DNA of 64,000 bases from Microlunatus antarcticus (GTDB lineage Bacteria > Actinomycetota > Actinomycetes > Propionibacteriales > Propionibacteriaceae). The stretch is taken from the NCBI RefSeq assembly GCF_014193425.1, contig NZ_JACHZG010000001.1, positions 620,001 to 684,000 on the forward strand, read 5' to 3'. The position numbers were made by a program, and so were the translations under genes. How positions within the stretch are numbered: the stretch's first letter is position 1; each line of letters starts with the position of its first letter. Below, piece after piece: positions 51,828 to 57,441 of the stretch. Under the pieces are notes generated by a model. It had not been told where the DNA came from. It did no database searches and worked only from the letters and a program-made list of their open reading frames with translations.

Positions 51828-53081
51828 ATGCGCGCGCTCCGACCGGTCCTCCTCTGCCTGCTGCTGGCGGTCCCTGCGGTCGCCCTGCGGCTCACCGGGA
51901 CCGAGGTGGCCCCGGGCGTGGCCCTGCTGACGTTCGGGATCGCGGTCGTGGCGTCGTCGTTCGTGCTGGCCTGGGCGGCCGAGGCGGCCGAGGTCGACAT
52001 CGCGGGCGGGCTGGCCATCGCCGTGCTCGCCGTGATCGCCGTGCTGCCCGAGTACGCGGTCGACCTCTACTTCGCCTACACCGCCGGCTCGCGCCCCGAG
52101 TACGTGCAGTTCGCCGCCGCCAACATGACCGGCTCGAACCGCCTGCTCCTCGGCCTCGGCTGGTCGCTCGTCGTGCTGCTGGCCCTCTACGTGGCCCGGC
52201 GGCGCACCGGCCGCCCGGTGAAGGAGCTCGTCCTCGACCCCGCGTACCGCATCGAGATCGGGTTCCTCGCGCTCGCGTCGCTGCTCGCGCTCGTCGTGCC
52301 CGCGACCGGGGAGATCCACCTCTGGCTGGGGCTCGTCCTGCTCGGTGTCTTCGTCTTCTACCTGGTCCGCATGGCGCGCTCGGGCTCCGACGACGAGCAC
52401 GACCTCGTCGGACCCGCGGCCCGGATCGGCGCCCTGCCCACCCGCACGCGACGCATCACGGTGGTGGCCATGTTCGTGGTGGCCGCGCTGGTCATCCTGG
52501 CCTCGGCCGAGCCGTTCGCCGACGCCCTGGTGCACAGCGGCCAGGCGCTGGGGATCGACCAGTTCCTGCTCGTGCAGTGGCTCGCGCCGCTGTCCTCGGA
52601 GGCGCCGGAGCTGATCATCGCGATGATCTTCGCGCTGCGGGGCAAGGGCGGGGCCGCCCTCGGCCTGCTCGTGTCGGCCAAGGTCAACCAGTGGACGCTG
52701 CTCGTCGGCAGCCTGCCGATCGCCTACCTCGCCGGCGGCGGCTCGACCAGCCTGGTGCTGGACTCCCGCCAGGTCGAGGAGTTCGCCCTGACCGTCGCGC
52801 AGACCCTGATGGGGATCGCGGTGCTGATCACGCTGCGCTTCCCGCGCTGGGCCGCGTGGACCCTGCTGGCGCTGTTCGGGATCCAGTTCGGCGTGCCCGG
52901 GACGGGTGGCCGGCTGGTCCTGACCGGCGTCTACCTCGTGCTCGCAACGGTCGCGCTGGTGATCAACCGGCACAGCGTCCTGCCCACCCTCGCCGCGCCG
53001 TTCCGGCGGACGCAGAGCGTCGTCAGCGCGGCTGCGGCGGACGTCAGAGAGCTTCAGCCGAGCGGATCGGCGGGTCGGTAG
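51828..53081 (+). CDS. CaCA-type sodium/calcium (cation) exchanger
   Basis: This 417-residue protein has about eleven helices and two inverted alpha-repeats. The first has AVLPEYAVDLYFAYT and ANMTGSNRLLLG (near 65-105); the second has LSSEAPELIIAMIFALRG and KVNQWTLLVGSLP (near 258-300). Conserved Glu residues in both repeats coordinate cations in this family. It likely exports Ca2+ in exchange for Na+ or H+. Its 3' end overlaps the convergent kinase gene by 38 bases. Confidence 0.88.
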   Translation: MRALRPVLLCLLLAVPAVALRLTGTEVAPGVALLTFGIAVVASSFVLAWAAEAAEVDIAGGLAIAVLAVIAVLPEYAVDLYFAYTAGSRPEYVQFAAANMTGSNRLLLGLGWSLVVLLALYVARRRTGRPVKELVLDPAYRIEIGFLALASLLALVVPATGEIHLWLGLVLLGVFVFYLVRMARSGSDDEHDLVGPAARIGALPTRTRRITVVAMFVVAALVILASAEPFADALVHSGQALGIDQFLLVQWLAPLSSEAPELIIAMIFALRGKGGAALGLLVSAKVNQWTLLVGSLPIAYLAGGGSTSLVLDSRQVEEFALTVAQTLMGIAVLITLRFPRWAAWTLLALFGIQFGVPGTGGRLVLTGVYLVLATVALVINRHSVLPTLAAPFRRTQSVVSAAAADVRELQPSGSAGR

Positions 53082-53904
53082 GCCTCGCCCACCCCGGCCA
53101 CGCCGGTCGCTGCCGCGGGAGGCAGCGCGCGACGAGGTCCAGCGCCGCCCGGACCGACGGGCGGGTCGAGGGGTCGGGCGCGGTGAGGCGCTCGACCGCG
53201 TCGGCCAGCGCGGCCGAGCCCGGACCCGGCCAACGTCGGGCCAGGGTCTCGCGGAGCACCGCGCCCACGCCGTAGACGTCCATGGCCGCGCTGACCGGCT
53301 CGCACGCCTCCATCTCGGGGCTGGCGTAGCCGAGCGTCCCCACGGGACGGCCCGCGGGCTGGCGGCTGCCCAGGCGACGGGAGCTGCCGAGATCGATCAG
53401 CACGGCGTGGCCGTCGCGGACCACGACGTTGGCGGGGGTGACGTCGAGGTGGGCGACCCCGCGGGCGTGCAGGGGCAGGAGCGCGCTGAGCAGCTGGCTG
53501 CCCAGCAGCGCCGCCGCCCCCGCGGGGATACGACGACGAGCCAGCAGGTCGTCGAGGTCGGAGCCGCCGACGTGCTCCTGCACGACGTACGGCAGCCCGG
53601 CGCCGAGGTCGTGGCGGTAGAGGTGCGGGAGGTGCGGGTGGAGGATGCCCTCCAGCGCCCGGACCTCGCGGCCGAGGGACGCCCGGGCGCGCGGGTGGTC
53701 GACCTGGTGCGGCCGCGGGAGCTTGACCACGACCGGGGCCCACAGGAGCCCGCACCAGCCCAGCCACGCCTCGCAGCGGCCACCGACCCCCAGCCGGCGC
53801 CACGCCTGCACGTCCGGGACCAGGGGTGCTCCCTCCGCCACGACCCAGACCGGGTCGCCGTCGTCGTCGACCTCGGTCGTCGAGGTCCGCTGCTCGACCG
53901 TCAT
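53044..53904 (-). CDS. Soluble Ser/Thr protein kinase of the RS-peptide locus
   Basis: This 286-residue protein is a Hanks-type kinase domain with no membrane helix or sensor. Key residues are present: a Gly-rich loop LGVGGRCEAW (38-47), Lys61 (VVVKLP), Glu80, the catalytic HLDVTPAN (D154, N159), a DLG in place of DFG (171-173), and a substrate-loop GTLGYASPE. It should be an active cytosolic kinase. It lies 85 bases after two Ser/Arg-repeat peptide genes on the same strand, with a hairpin between, suggesting those peptides as substrates. GAGGAAGAG precedes the ATG. Confidence 0.88.
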   Translation of the reverse strand: MTVEQRTSTTEVDDDGDPVWVVAEGAPLVPDVQAWRRLGVGGRCEAWLGWCGLLWAPVVVKLPRPHQVDHPRARASLGREVRALEGILHPHLPHLYRHDLGAGLPYVVQEHVGGSDLDDLLARRRIPAGAAALLGSQLLSALLPLHARGVAHLDVTPANVVVRDGHAVLIDLGSSRRLGSRQPAGRPVGTLGYASPEMEACEPVSAAMDVYGVGAVLRETLARRWPGPGSAALADAVERLTAPDPSTRPSVRAALDLVARCLPRQRPAWPGWARPTDPPIRSAEAL

Positions 53905-53950
53905 CGCCTGCTCTTCCTCGTCAGAGATCTGGGGTGCCCCTCGTGCGTAG

Positions 53951-53982
53951 GACGGGCCGTCCCGGGGTGGGGACGGCCCGTC
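53951..53982 (-). terminator. Hairpin between RS peptide genes and kinase
   Basis: A perfect 13-bp stem (53951-53963 with 53970-53982) closes a six-base loop, starting eight bases past the stop of the first RS peptide. On the minus strand it would partly terminate transcription or protect the transcript, giving much more peptide than kinase message. This is a common layout in peptide-modification operons. Confidence 0.7.
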
Positions 53983-53989
53983 GGGTGCG

Positions 53990-54088
53990 TCAGGAGCGCG
54001 AACGGCTCCGGCTCCGGCTGCGGCTCCGGCTGCGCGAGCGGCCGTGCTTCCGGTCGGCCACGAGGGCCTTGATGCGGATGATCTTCAT
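53990..54088 (-). CDS. RS-repeat peptide 1 (32 residues)
   Basis: This small gene encodes MKIIRIKALVADRKHG followed by eight Arg-Ser dipeptides. The ATG at 54088 has a near-perfect ribosome site (AGGAGGTGA, nine bases upstream), so translation should be strong. The peptide is very basic (charge about +13 before modification) with no Cys. The RS units use varied codons (CGC, CGG, CGT; AGC, TCG, TCC), so this is not a simple DNA repeat expansion. It sits between an ABC exporter and a Ser/Thr kinase. Likely a secreted or phosphorylated peptide; function is unknown. Confidence 0.8.
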   Translation of the reverse strand: MKIIRIKALVADRKHGRSRSRSRSRSRSRSRS

Positions 54089-54176
54089 GCGTGTTCACCT
54101 CCTCGTGAGCTGGTGGACTGGTCGGACGTGCTGGCGAGCGGGCGTTCCCGGGGTCCGGGGCTGACCGCCCGACCCG

Positions 54177-54272
54177 TCAGGAGCGCGAACGGCTGCGGCT
54201 GCGGGACCGGCTGCGGCTGCGCGAGCGGCCGTGCTTCCGGTCGGCCGCGAGGCGCTTGATGCGGATGATCAT
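54177..54272 (-). CDS. RS-repeat peptide 2 (31 residues)
   Basis: This tandem paralog of peptide 1 encodes MIIRIKRLAADRKHG and again exactly eight Arg-Ser dipeptides. Its ATG overlaps the ABC exporter stop (ATGA), so it is translationally coupled to it. Compared with peptide 1, the head differs at three positions (one Lys lost, A to R, V to A), while all differences in the RS part are synonymous, including an AGC to TCC serine switch. That pattern indicates selection on the RS tail. It is probably a substrate or cargo of the neighbouring kinase and exporter. Confidence 0.8.
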   Translation of the reverse strand: MIIRIKRLAADRKHGRSRSRSRSRSRSRSRS

Positions 54273-56005
54273 GAGGTCATCACCCCCTCCCGGGTCTCGT
54301 GGCGGGCGACGGCACCGAGCGGTGCGGTCGAGCTCTGGGTCAGGTGGACGATGCGGTCGGCGACGCGCGCCAGGGCCGGGTCATGGGTCACCAGGAGGGT
54401 CGTGCGCCGGGCGGTCGTGGCCCGGACCGCGTCGATCACGTGCGCCGCGGAGGCCGCGTCGAGCGAGGCGGTCGGCTCGTCGAGCAGCACCAGCCGGGCC
54501 GGCGAGACGGCGGCCCGCGCCAGGGCGACCCGGCGTCGCTGACCGCCCGACAGCCGCAGGCCGCCCTCGCCCAGCGGGGTGTCGTAGGCCAGCGGCAGCC
54601 GGTCCACGAACTCGTCCACGTGGGTCCGGGCGCACGCCTCGACGACCTGGGCCCGGGTCGCGGTCCGCGACCCGAAGGCGACGTTCTGGGCGAGGGTCGC
54701 GTCCAGCAGCCAGGGGTCCTGCGGCACGTAGGCGATCTGCTCGCGGACGCTCTGCCGGGTCCAGCGGCGCAGGTCGGTGCCGTCGACCAGGATCGTCCCG
54801 GTCTCGGGGTCCCACAGCCGGAGGAGCAGCAGGAGCAGGGTGCTCTTGCCGACCCCGCTCGGGCCGAACAGGCACACGGTCTCGCCGCGCTCGATCGTCA
54901 GGTCCACGTCCGCGAGCACCGGGCGCCCGGGCTCGTAGCCGAACCCGACCCCCCGGAACTCCACCGGCCCGAGCAGCGCCGGGGCCACCACGGCCCCGGC
55001 CGCGTCGGGTCCCTCCGGCTCGGCCTCGAGGACGTCGTTGATCCGGTCGGCGCTCGCGCCGGCCCGGGCCCAGACGCCGGACAGGCGGGTGAGGGCGCGG
55101 ACGGGGGAGTAGAGGTCGCGCAGGTAGCCGAGCACCACGAGCAGGCCGCCCGTGCTCAGCGACCCGTTAGTGACCTGGAGGCCGCCGGCGACCAGGACCA
55201 GGGCGGCGCCGAGCGCCAGCACGAGGTCGGCGTACGGGGTCCAGCGGGTCTCGACGTCGACGGCGGCGACGTTCGTCCGGAGCAGGTCGGCGTTCGTGCT
55301 GCCGAAGTCGCCGACCGCGCGGTCGACGCGGCCGAAGGCCTGGACGGCGACGACGTTGCGGAGCAGGTCGGTCGCCGTCGTGCTCAGCCGACCGGCCGCG
55401 GAACGGGCCGCGACCTGGCTGGAGCGGACGCGACGGCGCTGGTGGACGGCCAGCACCGCGAGCAGCGGGACGACGAGCAGGCCGAGCAGCGCGAGCCACG
55501 GGTCGAGCGCGACCAGGACGACGGTGACGCCGACGAGCATGAGCACGTCGGGCACGAGGCTGAGCGTCGTGGCCGCGACCGCGTCGAGGACCCGGCCGAC
55601 GTCCGAGGTGAGCCGGGAGACGACCTCGGCGCTGCGGGTGCCCGCGTGCCAGCGCAGGGAGAGCCGCAGGCTGCGGCTGAGGACGTCGTGGCGCAGACCG
55701 GCACCCAGCCGCTCGGCCGTCCGCTCGGCGGAGCGGGTCGCGCCGAGGTCGAGCAGGCTGACCAGCACGCTGGTGAGGAGCGTCGTGACCCCGGCGCCGA
55801 CCAGCAGGAGCGCGGGGTCGACGCCGGCGAGGACGGGCGGGATGCCGTCACGCTCGATGGCCCAGTCGACGGCGAGCGCCAGCGGCCAGGGCCGGGCGAG
55901 CTCCGCCCCCACCTGCAGCACCGACAGGCCGCAGGAGGCGACCAGCGCACGACGGTGCGTTCGGGCCGGCTCCACGACGAGGCGGAGGAGGGAGGAGGTG
56001 CTCAC
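54269..56005 (-). CDS. ABC exporter (fused membrane and ATPase domains) of the RS-peptide locus
   Basis: This 578-residue type I ABC half-transporter has six membrane helices (about 1-310), then an ATPase domain with Walker A GPSGVGKST (near 378), Q-loop, signature LSGGQRRRVALARA (near 483), Walker B LVLLDEPTASLD and the switch His in VTHDP. It has no C39 peptidase domain, so it would not cleave a leader. It exports a small molecule or peptide as a dimer. The second RS peptide gene overlaps its stop, suggesting the RS peptides as cargo. GTG 56005 lies at the family start. Confidence 0.9.
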   Translation of the reverse strand: MSTSSLLRLVVEPARTHRRALVASCGLSVLQVGAELARPWPLALAVDWAIERDGIPPVLAGVDPALLLVGAGVTTLLTSVLVSLLDLGATRSAERTAERLGAGLRHDVLSRSLRLSLRWHAGTRSAEVVSRLTSDVGRVLDAVAATTLSLVPDVLMLVGVTVVLVALDPWLALLGLLVVPLLAVLAVHQRRRVRSSQVAARSAAGRLSTTATDLLRNVVAVQAFGRVDRAVGDFGSTNADLLRTNVAAVDVETRWTPYADLVLALGAALVLVAGGLQVTNGSLSTGGLLVVLGYLRDLYSPVRALTRLSGVWARAGASADRINDVLEAEPEGPDAAGAVVAPALLGPVEFRGVGFGYEPGRPVLADVDLTIERGETVCLFGPSGVGKSTLLLLLLRLWDPETGTILVDGTDLRRWTRQSVREQIAYVPQDPWLLDATLAQNVAFGSRTATRAQVVEACARTHVDEFVDRLPLAYDTPLGEGGLRLSGGQRRRVALARAAVSPARLVLLDEPTASLDAASAAHVIDAVRATTARRTTLLVTHDPALARVADRIVHLTQSSTAPLGAVARHETREGVMTS

Positions 56006-56109
56006 GGCATCCACACTCGGTCGGGCCCGGTGCAGCCCGCCATCGGACCTTCGGGCTAGTCCGATCGTCCGACGGCGCGGGGACGTCCGCGGGCTTACGC
56101 TCGCTGACC

Positions 56110-57441
56110 ATGGTCGATCCACGACGGCGACGGCGCGCCGACCCGCAGGCGCCCGTGTCCGTGGCCGGCCTCGTGCTGCGGTTCAGCCTGGCCGGGCTCG
56201 TGGTGATGGCGCTGCTGGGGACGGTGCTGGCCGTGCTCGCCCGGCAGGCGGGGACCGAGCAGGCGGTCGACTCGGCCCGTCAGGTGGCGTACGTCGCCGG
56301 GCGAGGCATCGCCGAGCCCCGCCTCACCGACGCGGTGCTCGCCGGCGACCCCGCGGCCCTGCGTGCGCTCGACGTCGACCTGCACCGCTACGTGCTGCAG
56401 GGCTCGCTGGTGCGGGTCAAGCTCTGGCGTGCCGACGGGCGCATCCTCTACTCCGACGAGCCGCGCCTGGTGGGGCAGGGCTTCCCGCTCCAGGAGGACG
56501 AGACGGAGGCGCTCGAGCAGGGGCTCGTCGACTCCGAGATCAGCGACCTCTCGGCACCCGAGAACGTCTACGAGCGGCCGTTCGGCAAGCTGCTCGAGGT
56601 GTACGTCGGACTCACCTCCGCCAGCGGGGAGCGGCTGCTCTTCGAGGCGTACTTCCGCTACGACGCCGTGGTCACCGCCGCCGAGGCGCAGTGGCGCAAG
56701 TACGCGCCGCCCACGCTGGCCGGGCTCCTCGCGCTCCAGCTGGTGCAGATCCCGTTCGCCTGGTCGCTCGCCCGCCGGCTCCAGCGTCAGCAGCGCGAGC
56801 GTCAGCGCCTGCTCCAGCGGGCGGTCGACGCCTCCCAGGTGGAGCGACGTCGCATCGCCGGGGACCTGCACGACGGCGTCGTCCAGGACCTGACCGGCCT
56901 CACGTACGCCCTCGACGCGGCGCGACTCGGTCCCGACCGGCCGGACGGGCACCGCGAGCTGGTCGGTCGGGCGGCGAAGCAGCTGCGGGCCAGCGTCGCG
57001 GACCTGCGCACGCTGCTGGTCGAGATCTACCCGCCGGACCTCGCCGTCGAGGGGCTGCCCGCCGCGCTGACCGATCTCGCCGCGGGGCTGGAGCGCGCGG
57101 GTCTCCGCGTGGACCTCGACGTCGAGGACTCCGCCGACCTGCCGCTGGACGTGGCGTCGGTGCTCTTCCGCAGCGGGCAGGAGGTGCTGCGCAACGTCGT
57201 CGCGCACAGCGACGCCCGGCACGTCGCCCTGCAGGCCGGTCGGCGCGACGGGGTGGCGAGCCTCGTGGTGGACGACGACGGCCGCGGCTTCGACGCGGCG
57301 GACCTCGACCGCCGCTTCGCCGAGGGGCACATCGGGCTGCGGTCGCTGGGCGACCTGATCGACGACTCGGGGGGCACGTTGTCCGTCCGCTCCGCCCCGG
57401 GCCAGGGGACGCGCGTCGAGATCGTGGTGCCGGTCGCATGA
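56110..57441 (+). CDS. Sensor histidine kinase, NarL-type (HisKA_3)
   Basis: This 443-residue membrane sensor has helix 1 at about 20-42, an extracellular domain of about 160 residues, and helix 2 near 200-220. The HisKA_3 dimerisation helix has the phospho-accepting H254 in ERRRIAGDLHDGVVQDL, and a HATPase domain follows (GQEVLRNVVAHSDA, VVDDDGRGFD, HIGLRSLGD). It is divergent from the RS-peptide ABC exporter with a 104-base gap and is coupled by ATGA overlap to its response regulator, so it may control this locus. Confidence 0.93.
   Translation: MVDPRRRRRADPQAPVSVAGLVLRFSLAGLVVMALLGTVLAVLARQAGTEQAVDSARQVAYVAGRGIAEPRLTDAVLAGDPAALRALDVDLHRYVLQGSLVRVKLWRADGRILYSDEPRLVGQGFPLQEDETEALEQGLVDSEISDLSAPENVYERPFGKLLEVYVGLTSASGERLLFEAYFRYDAVVTAAEAQWRKYAPPTLAGLLALQLVQIPFAWSLARRLQRQQRERQRLLQRAVDASQVERRRIAGDLHDGVVQDLTGLTYALDAARLGPDRPDGHRELVGRAAKQLRASVADLRTLLVEIYPPDLAVEGLPAALTDLAAGLERAGLRVDLDVEDSADLPLDVASVLFRSGQEVLRNVVAHSDARHVALQAGRRDGVASLVVDDDGRGFDAADLDRRFAEGHIGLRSLGDLIDDSGGTLSVRSAPGQGTRVEIVVPVA

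What the first reader, a model, noticed from the sequence alone, without database searches (positions are those of the whole stretch)
53044..56005. Undescribed locus: ABC exporter, two RS-repeat microproteins and a soluble Ser/Thr kinase
On one strand lie an ABC exporter (54269-56005), two tandem genes for 31- and 32-residue peptides (54177-54272, 53990-54088), a 13-bp hairpin (53951-53982) and a soluble kinase (53044-53904). Each peptide is a conserved basic head (shared IIRIK-x-L-x-ADRKHG) plus exactly eight Arg-Ser units. Seen directly: ATGA overlap of exporter and peptide 2, a strong ribosome site on peptide 1, and all kinase catalytic residues. Inference: the kinase phosphorylates the RS tails, much as SRPK kinases do for eukaryotic SR proteins, and the exporter may secrete the product. 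Lanthipeptide synthetases also use kinase-like domains on Ser, but no lyase or cyclase is present here.
Basis: partly seen in the sequence, partly recalled or inferred. Interest (0 to 1): 0.93.

Follow-up and report, generated by a model that had tools for sequence, protein, structure and literature searches.

The report
Bacterial kinase, Arg-Ser peptide, exporter cassette
Some actinobacteria carry a compact three-gene cassette, a tiny serine- or threonine-rich peptide (often pure Arg-Ser repeats) between an export pump and a small protein kinase; the genes keep company across distant species, which suggests that the kinase decorates the peptide with phosphates and the pump exports it.

Summary
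In detail: exporter, two (Arg-Ser)8 microproteins, hairpin and soluble kinase lie where stated. It is also conserved. Kinase searches found 12 further loci in 12 genomes, including three Actinoplanes and three genomes outside the window's class. All 13 loci show exporter, microprotein, hairpin, kinase, in that order on one strand. Kinase and exporter identities agree (12 loci, Mantel r 0.94).

Arg-Ser becomes Arg-Thr in some loci; in two the tail has almost no Arg yet stays Ser/Thr-rich. The constant is a hydroxyl-rich tail behind a variable head, so SRPK/SR protein is a partial analogy. A shared head motif is not established. No phosphoSer lyase or LanC domain was recognised in the cassette proteins; LanC-like genes were not found in 6 of 13 genomes, the window's included.

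Best reading: a kinase-only, exported phosphopeptide (RiPP-like) system, beside a two-component system in 8 of 13 loci. Closest precedents are phospeptin and the LanL kinase domain, but the kinase is of another clade and no library searched names the peptides. Phosphorylation, export and function are inferred.

The parts
54269..56005 (-). ABC exporter half-transporter (membrane domain + ATPase, no C39 peptidase recognised), first gene of the cassette
   Evidence: orthologues 44-81% identical to it in the 11 other loci aligned (L145 left out, frame disrupted); no peptidase family among the Pfam hits of these 12 exporters at E <= 0.001
54177..54272 (-). microprotein A, 31 aa: head IIRIKRLAADRKHG + (Arg-Ser)8; start codon overlaps exporter stop
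   Evidence: synonymous-change test; alignment
53990..54088 (-). microprotein B, 32 aa: head IIRIKALVADRKHG + (Arg-Ser)8; Shine-Dalgarno-like GGAGG 9 nt upstream
   Evidence: alignment; SD-like purine stretch before all 14 peptide genes
53951..53982 (-). 13-bp G+C-rich hairpin without T-run between microprotein B and the kinase
   Evidence: hairpin in the same gap of 13 of 13 loci; z -2.4 or lower in 12 of 13, L145 -1.34; no terminator-like site by the T-run scan
53044..53904 (-). soluble Hanks-type Ser/Thr kinase, 286 aa, acidic N-terminal tag DDDGDPVW before the kinase fold
   Evidence: family on one side of a branch with SH-aLRT 97
56110..57441 (+). divergent sensor histidine kinase (HisKA_3, HATPase_c); adjacent, probable regulator, not universal
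   Evidence: related ORF in L038, L039, L049, L050
57438..58100 (+). LuxR/NarL-type response regulator; adjacent, probable regulator, not universal
   Evidence: LuxR-type regulators beside the cassette in L039, L048 and L049 too; in L112 and L113 an OmpR-type regulator and histidine kinase lie downstream instead

Best explanation
A three-gene cassette makes and exports a small phosphopeptide. The microprotein is a precursor with an N-terminal head, perhaps a recognition segment, and a Ser/Thr-rich C-terminal core, here (Arg-Ser)8. The soluble Hanks-type kinase phosphorylates the core hydroxyls repeatedly, turning a strongly cationic tail (+10 here) into a zwitterionic or acidic one. The ABC exporter carries the product, perhaps unprocessed, across the membrane. 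A strong ribosome site and a hairpin after the peptide gene would favour much peptide over little enzyme. In 8 of 13 loci a neighbouring two-component system probably sets expression. Shown here: anatomy, order, conservation, selection on the peptide, agreeing histories of kinase and exporter. Inferred: translation, head recognition, phosphorylation, export, outside function.
For: Exporter-peptide-hairpin-kinase on one strand in 13 of 13 loci, across the window's genus, Actinoplanes and its family, another family of the order, and genomes outside the class. In the comparison of neighbouring ORFs of 90 aa or more, only exporter and kinase recur throughout (exporter in 13 of 13 loci; the kinase of L113 fell to the ORF filter there and is shown). 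Kinase and exporter identities correlate over 66 pairs of 12 loci, Mantel r 0.941, 0 of 5000 permutations as high. Tails keep Ser/Thr (4-13 of the last 20 residues) while Arg/Lys/His there varies from 0 to 12, so hydroxyls are the constant. Synonymous-biased changes. Catalytic residues kept. Acidity of the kinase N-tag tracks tail charge, r -0.70. Precedent: the LanL kinase domain alone phosphorylates its precursor 2-4 times (PMC2843593, passages); phospeptin is a poly-phosphorylated RiPP held to be a final product (PMC9259500, section 8).
Against: No biochemical or expression data. The exporter has no recognised C39 peptidase and no leader cleavage site is evident, so export of this peptide is inferred from order alone. 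The window kinase has Thr in place of the HRDxK lysine and lacks the third glycine of the Gly-loop. A common head motif is not established: over ten heads it beats 100 of 100 shuffles, but over eight, with one each of the related pairs L112/L113 and L048/L050, 30 of 100 shuffles do as well (the first test gave the real set more restarts than the shuffles). The charge correlation is confounded by descent, uses 13 points, one with an incomplete tag (L145), and whole-kinase charge shows none (r 0.05). No two-component neighbour was seen in 5 of 13 (BLAST only). [quoted passage not shown] In L145, a fragmented assembly, exporter and kinase frames are disrupted.
Confidence: 0.48

Rival explanations
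1. Cationic antimicrobial peptide with kinase immunity: the unmodified Arg-rich peptide is the weapon, the kinase phosphorylates it inside the producer to neutralise it, and the exporter ejects it.
For: Tail charge +8 to +10 in the three loci of the window genus and +4 to +10 in Actinoplanes; exporter in every locus; patchy distribution (3 of 67 Actinoplanes genomes), as bacteriocin clusters often have (recalled); two tandem peptide genes in the window.
Against: Two loci (L112, L113) have tails of net charge -1 and no basic repeat, yet keep kinase and exporter. No further large gene that could give immunity is shared by all loci; phosphatases were not searched for.
Confidence: 0.19
2. Intracellular SR-like regulator: the RS peptide binds RNA or forms condensates controlled by phosphorylation, or acts as pseudosubstrate or regulator of kinase or exporter; the exporter moves something else.
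For: RS repeats resemble SR-domain tails (recalled); no peptidase domain in the exporters; most peptides are strongly basic.
Against: Arg is not kept in the tails of L112 and L113 and is sparse in L144. An exporter is the constant neighbour, and its history agrees with the kinase's.
Confidence: 0.18
3. Dehydrated (lanthipeptide-like) product: the kinase activates Ser/Thr and a phosphoSer/Thr lyase elsewhere in the genome eliminates phosphate.
For: LanKC/LanL and class V enzymes pair kinases with lyases on Ser/Thr (PMC9486802 passages); 7 of 13 genomes carry LANC_like genes; 5 of 14 peptides have Cys, L144 three.
Against: LANC_like not found in 6 of 13 genomes, including the window's and both closest relatives (some assemblies incomplete; lyases alone not searched). 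The three enzymes from these genomes that NCBIfam names LanL or LanKC score only 39-64 bits in their kinase domain against >=372 for the family and lie far away in the tree. 9 of 14 peptides have no Cys.
Confidence: 0.08
4. Chance repeat: the small ORFs are untranslated and the RS runs are a by-product of G+C-rich repeats.
For: ORFs are short, and such repeats can arise by slippage in high-GC DNA (recalled).
Against: Conserved position in 13 of 13 loci with SD-like sequence before all 14 peptide genes, synonymous-biased changes, Ser split between TCN and AGY codons, RS to RT replacement with alternation kept.
Confidence: 0.03

Closest known systems
Phospeptin (EmbA/EmbM), a poly-phosphorylated RiPP
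   Same: One small precursor modified by a sole kinase-type maturase; the phosphorylated linear peptide is held to be the end product (PMC9259500 section 8).
   Different: [quoted passage not shown] that it is LanM-type is recalled); here the enzyme is a free Hanks-type kinase, the core is often Arg-Ser/Arg-Thr, and an exporter is always next door.
LanL / LanKC (class IV/III) lanthipeptide systems, including RamC of SapB (RamS recalled)
   Same: Small precursor, Hanks-like kinase acting on Ser/Thr, ABC transporter genes nearby (venL, venA, venT, venH, PMC2843593 passages); the LanL kinase domain alone gives multiply phosphorylated precursor.
   Different: No lyase or cyclase domain in the 286-aa enzyme or recognised in the cassette proteins; kinase of another clade; no Cys in 9 of 14 peptides.
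Class V lanthipeptide kinase + HopA1-type lyase (CaoK/CaoY)
   Same: Separate, stand-alone kinase that iteratively phosphorylates a precursor (PMC9486802 passages).
   Different: CaoK is APH-type; here Pkinase matches 13 of 13 (best 3.4e-34) and APH 6 of 13 (best 3.7e-9); no HopA1 family among the Pfam hits of the cassette proteins.
SRPK kinases and eukaryotic SR proteins
   Same: Kinase paired with Arg-Ser dipeptide repeats (SR-protein features recalled).
   Different: Compact bacterial Hanks kinase, 25-46-aa peptides, Arg dispensable in some loci, exporter partner.
PknB/StkP-type bacterial Ser/Thr kinases
   Same: Fold and catalytic motifs; best PDB profile and structure matches.
   Different: 286 aa with no domain but the kinase recognised, non-RD, tied to one peptide and one exporter.

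Membership tests
Class III/IV lanthipeptide synthetase system | Kinase fused to phosphoSer/Thr lyase and LanC-like cyclase | tested here: not met
   286 aa, kinase domain only; LanL and LanKC models match only their kinase part, 73 and 41 bits against cut-offs of 650 and 575; no LANC family among 13 members
Class III/IV lanthipeptide synthetase system | LanC-like cyclase available in the genome | tested here: inconclusive
   no match in the window genome and in 5 further of the 13 genomes; present in 7 of 13; completeness of the six 92-100%
Phosphorylated RiPP (phospeptin-like) | Small precursor with Ser/Thr core beside a kinase-type maturase | tested here: met
   13 of 13 loci
Phosphorylated RiPP (phospeptin-like) | Leader segment recognised by the maturase | tested here: inconclusive
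   head motif 0 of 100 shuffles as good over ten heads, 30 of 100 over eight less related ones
Phosphorylated RiPP (phospeptin-like) | Maturase is a LanM-type dehydration domain | tested here: not met
   Pkinase PF00069 in 13 of 13; no lanthipeptide dehydratase family listed
Phosphorylated RiPP (phospeptin-like) | Stable phosphate on the final peptide | not testable with these tools
   needs mass spectrometry
Class V lanthipeptides | HopA1-type lyase partner | tested here: inconclusive
   no third large gene shared by all loci; genomes not searched for PF17914
SRPK / SR protein system | Arg-Ser dipeptide repeats as substrate | tested here: inconclusive
   RS in window, L038, L039, L050 (some Lys), broken in L049, mixed with RT in L101; RT in L048, L104, L145, L146; sparse in L144; none in L112, L113
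SRPK / SR protein system | Kinase of the SRPK family | tested here: inconclusive
   no SRPK among the 60 of 667 profile hits or the 50 VIA rows shown; PknB first
Peptidase-containing ABC transporters (PCAT, bacteriocin export) | N-terminal C39 peptidase domain | tested here: not met
   no C39 family in 12 of 12 exporters at E <= 0.001
ABC exporter (half-transporter) | ABC_membrane plus ABC_tran in one chain | tested here: met
   12 of 12; the L145 exporter, frame-disrupted, was left out of A8
Active Hanks-type Ser/Thr kinase | VAIK Lys, alpha-C Glu, HRD Asp/Asn, DFG Asp, APE Glu | tested here: met
   K61, E80, D154, N159, D171, E197 invariant in 13 of 13; activity itself not testable here

The most novel reading that the evidence does not exclude
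A new class of ribosomal peptide product: exported, multiply phosphorylated, zwitterionic Arg-pSer/Arg-pThr peptides made by a dedicated stand-alone Hanks kinase, with no lyase or cyclase. It would be a bacterial parallel to SR-tail phosphorylation, and a living example of the 'stand-alone kinase plus precursor' stage from which LanL synthetases were proposed to have evolved (PMC2843593 abstract passage), though this kinase clade is not the closest kin of LanL kinases.
Probability: 0.4. Interest if true: 0.87.

Novelty: new variant of a known kind. Interest (0 to 1): 0.75.

Why it matters
Stable phosphopeptides appear to be rare end products among ribosomal peptides: phospeptin and salivaricin 10 were the two that the searches brought up. 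A minimal exporter-peptide-kinase cassette would be a compact model of how one kinase decorates many Ser/Thr sites on a repeat, which can be rebuilt with two short genes. It would also offer a test of the idea that lanthipeptide synthetases grew from stand-alone kinases. Phosphorylated Arg-Ser peptides are zwitterionic polymers of a kind not known to me as secreted bacterial products, with possible roles at surfaces, with metals or minerals, or in competition.

Tried and rejected
Plasmids: no match to the window kinase at 1e-20. Phages: 12 records with distant kinases only, all <60% identity. PADLOC: the kinase hits PD-T4-6 and mad6 models by its kinase domain, the exporter hits mad3, AriA and mad8 ATPase parts; neighbouring genes were not scanned with PADLOC. 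Pfam and NCBIfam name none of the peptides (two peptides; all 14 with Pfam; best E 0.033, low complexity). Sigma-70-type promoter and T-run terminator scans over 52900-56300: none found. Foldseek and VIA-align give ordinary protein kinases; the large rmsd of whole-chain rows (5.9-9.3 A) suggests a lobe orientation in the model that I do not interpret. LanKC/LanL kinases are not among the rows shown, which says nothing either way. Exporter beside kinase without peptide: L140 (37% exporter, kinase outside the clade); not counted in the family. Kinases next in score (up to 220 bits) were not counted. Where they were given loci from L038 on, a search with the window exporter found only L140 and unrelated ABC pieces in L053, L063-L065 and L148; loci L001-L037 were scanned only for R[ST] runs (outside the family only one weak run, in L043), and six of the 36 matches were given no locus and were not examined. 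Papers: searches showed no description of this cassette; listings were capped (for instance 20 of 2,227, 20 of 860), and only one library of open papers was searched.


Full report
WHAT IS THERE. On the minus strand of the window lie, in order, an ABC exporter (54269-56005), microprotein A (54177-54272), microprotein B (53990-54088), a 13-bp hairpin (53951-53982) and a kinase (53044-53904). The two peptides read MIIRIKRLAADRKHG(RS)8 and MKIIRIKALVADRKHG(RS)8. In all six frames of the 64-kb window there is no other run of five or more R[ST] units. Ser is written by TCG, TCC and AGC, and differences between A, B and the nearest relative are mostly synonymous: 2, 3 and 2 replaced codons of 28 against 6.2, 10.9 and 8.0 in random-substitution simulations (P 0.002, then 0 of 20,000 twice). 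So the repeat is held at protein level.

CONSERVATION. A single-sequence search of 57 genomes, the window's own included, showed two close kinases besides the window's (71% and 60% identity) and then a drop to 40% or less. A scan of genome contigs gave 19 loci, three of them Actinoplanes with this cassette (L048-L050). Profiles built step by step (A1, A3, A4, A6) gave G341, G577, G1073 and G813 and G1301, G1288, G1274. Carriers: 3 of 20 genomes of the window's genus; 2 of 394 in the class sample, the window's own and G341; 3 of 67 Actinoplanes-genus genomes; 2 of 341 in the family of G341; 5 of 354 in the family of Actinoplanes; 3 of 197 in the window's family; 4 of 296 in the phylum sample; and 3 of 3 in the family of G1301. 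Samples overlap; one search scored only six candidates per genome and seven to twelve; carriers were judged by score gap plus neighbourhood. In a common scoring the 13 kinases reach 372 bits or more and the next kinase 220 (the profile was built from these 13). They fall on one side of a branch (SH-aLRT 97, 49 rows, quick tree). Their neighbour in the tree is a clade of soluble kinases of about 300 aa without this exporter.

ANATOMY IN ALL LOCI. Each of the 13 loci has the exporter (44-81% identical to the window's in the 11 others aligned; L145 is disrupted), a small ORF, and the kinase on the same strand. An SD-like sequence precedes all 14 peptide genes. A G+C-rich hairpin fills the gap before the kinase in 13 of 13; folding energy is 2.4-6.0 standard deviations below shuffles in 12 of 13, and L145 is weak, z -1.34. 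Exporter and kinase identities agree over 12 loci (Mantel r 0.941, 0 of 5000 permutations) and the two quick trees show no conflict between supported groups. A comparison of neighbouring ORFs of 90 aa or more found no other gene shared by all loci (ORFs filtered by codon G+C, which dropped the L113 kinase). In the window, L038, L039, L048, L049 and L050 a histidine kinase and/or LuxR-type regulator lies divergently beside the exporter (L039 has a further regulator downstream); in L112 and L113 an OmpR-type regulator and a histidine kinase follow the cassette. That is 8 of 13; Pfam was run on ten of these genes, L038 and L050 rest on BLAST, and none was seen by BLAST beside the other five.

THE PEPTIDES. 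L038 MIIIRIKGLVADRKHGRSRSRSRSRSYSRSRSRY; L039 MKAFHLGIKGLLSKRSHSRSRSRSRSRSRSRSRG; L048 MAGRRIQSPLQHRGGRKQTRTRTRTRTRTRTRG; L049 MAGRIQTPLEYWKKHHGKHDHSRSDSRSKSRSKSRCD; L050 MAGRIQTPLEYRKRHHKKRRHSRSRSRSKSRSRSRCH; L101 MVKKAIRKHRTRTRSRSRSRSRSHG; L104 MSTTHSSLIRGLAEAYPAQTSQRRTRTRTRGRTRTGHRRGHGRGHR; L112 MCWNGKAEWNGRGWHRGRVRGTHDVFKPSGSAADTTTVTTMDETR; L113 MCWGAKAADFRRGWWRVRGMHNVFTSQSNTSTDNTSTTVTTT; L144 (GTG start) MSSAFRSGGVKGLAQVHAAGCGWRTSTTSRSCSSRSQSCD; L145 MSRGRGRGRRVRGGHKVFSHHGGPSASSMSRSRTRTRTRTRG; L146 MSRGRGRGRRVRGGHKVFSHHGGHSASSMSKSRTRTRTRTRTRG. Ser or Thr make up 4 to 13 of the last 20 residues in every one; basic residues there range from 0 to 12. Hydroxyl residues are therefore the constant, and alternation with Arg is common but not required. 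The heads look as if they shared [IV]-[KRQ]-G-like letters. Over ten heads this beats 100 of 100 shuffled sets, but with one each of the related pairs L112/L113 and L048/L050 it does not (30 of 100 shuffles as good; an earlier, less even test is). So the split into leader and core is plausible, not shown.

THE KINASE. Pkinase (PF00069) in 13 of 13; no lyase or LanC family in any. K61, E80, D154, N159, D171 and E197 are invariant. The catalytic loop is HLD/HVD, so these are non-RD kinases; the window copy has Thr where nearly all others have Lys. An AlphaFold2 model (pLDDT 86.9, 13 sequences) is a protein kinase. In front of the fold sits an acidic tag (DDDGDPVW in the window). Its charge falls as tail charge rises (r -0.70, 13 loci), and it is neutral in L112 and L113, whose tails are not basic; this fits substrate contact but is confounded by descent, L145 enters with an incomplete tag, and whole-kinase charge shows no such trend (r 0.05).

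MECHANISM. I take the cassette as a phosphopeptide maker and exporter. Steps shown: gene order, conservation, selection on the peptide, an intact catalytic set. Steps inferred: translation of the peptides; recruitment of the kinase by the head; phosphorylation of core Ser/Thr one after another; export of the product; strong translation of the peptide and the downstream hairpin keeping substrate above enzyme. A kinase domain cut out of LanL does the phosphorylation step on its own precursor (2-4 phosphates, PMC2843593 passages), though the isolated ThurKC kinase domain did not (PMC10604976 passages), so activity must be measured. A finished RiPP that carries phosphates exists (phospeptin, PMC9259500, section 8 read), and salivaricin 10 keeps a phosphothreonine (PMC13219514 passages).

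COMPARISON AND LIMITS. It works like phospeptin or like a LanL system stripped to its kinase, but it is a member of neither: no lanthipeptide dehydration domain, no lyase, no cyclase, and a different kinase clade. LANC_like genes were not found in 6 of 13 genomes, including the window's, which argues against a lanthionine product as the general rule; stand-alone lyases were not searched. It resembles SRPK/SR proteins only in the loci with Arg-Ser tails. Against my reading stand: no peptidase domain or visible cleavage site, no expression data, the Thr in the window's catalytic loop, the unproven head motif, the patchy spread (most genomes searched lack it), and disrupted exporter and kinase frames in L145 (an assembly of 960 contigs). 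Nine paper searches, several with capped lists, in one open library showed no description of it; that is not proof of absence.

Noticed in passing
L069, L011, L119, L125, L126, L129 and other kinase loci: A sister clade (15 rows) of soluble kinases of about 300 aa in several families, up to 220 bits to the family profile, without the exporter or an R[ST] peptide beside them; their partners are unknown.
   Followed up: partly
L140 (1-3798): An exporter (37% identical) directly followed by a kinase outside the clade with no peptide between: possibly a different exporter-kinase pair.
   Followed up: partly
L145 (4591-7793): Exporter and kinase reading frames are disrupted in this fragmented assembly (960 contigs); intact relatives exist in the same family.
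   Followed up: no
window 56006-56109: Only about 100 bp separate the cassette from the divergent histidine kinase, so the promoters of both probably lie here; the sigma-70 scan found no match.
   Followed up: partly
window 53044-53904: The Lys of the HRDxK motif is Thr in the window kinase (HLDVTPAN), a possible clue to altered substrate handling.
   Followed up: partly
window as a whole: Genome sizes and group structure made me think of Propionibacteriaceae (Microlunatus-like) for the host; this is a guess from memory and was not tested.
   Followed up: no
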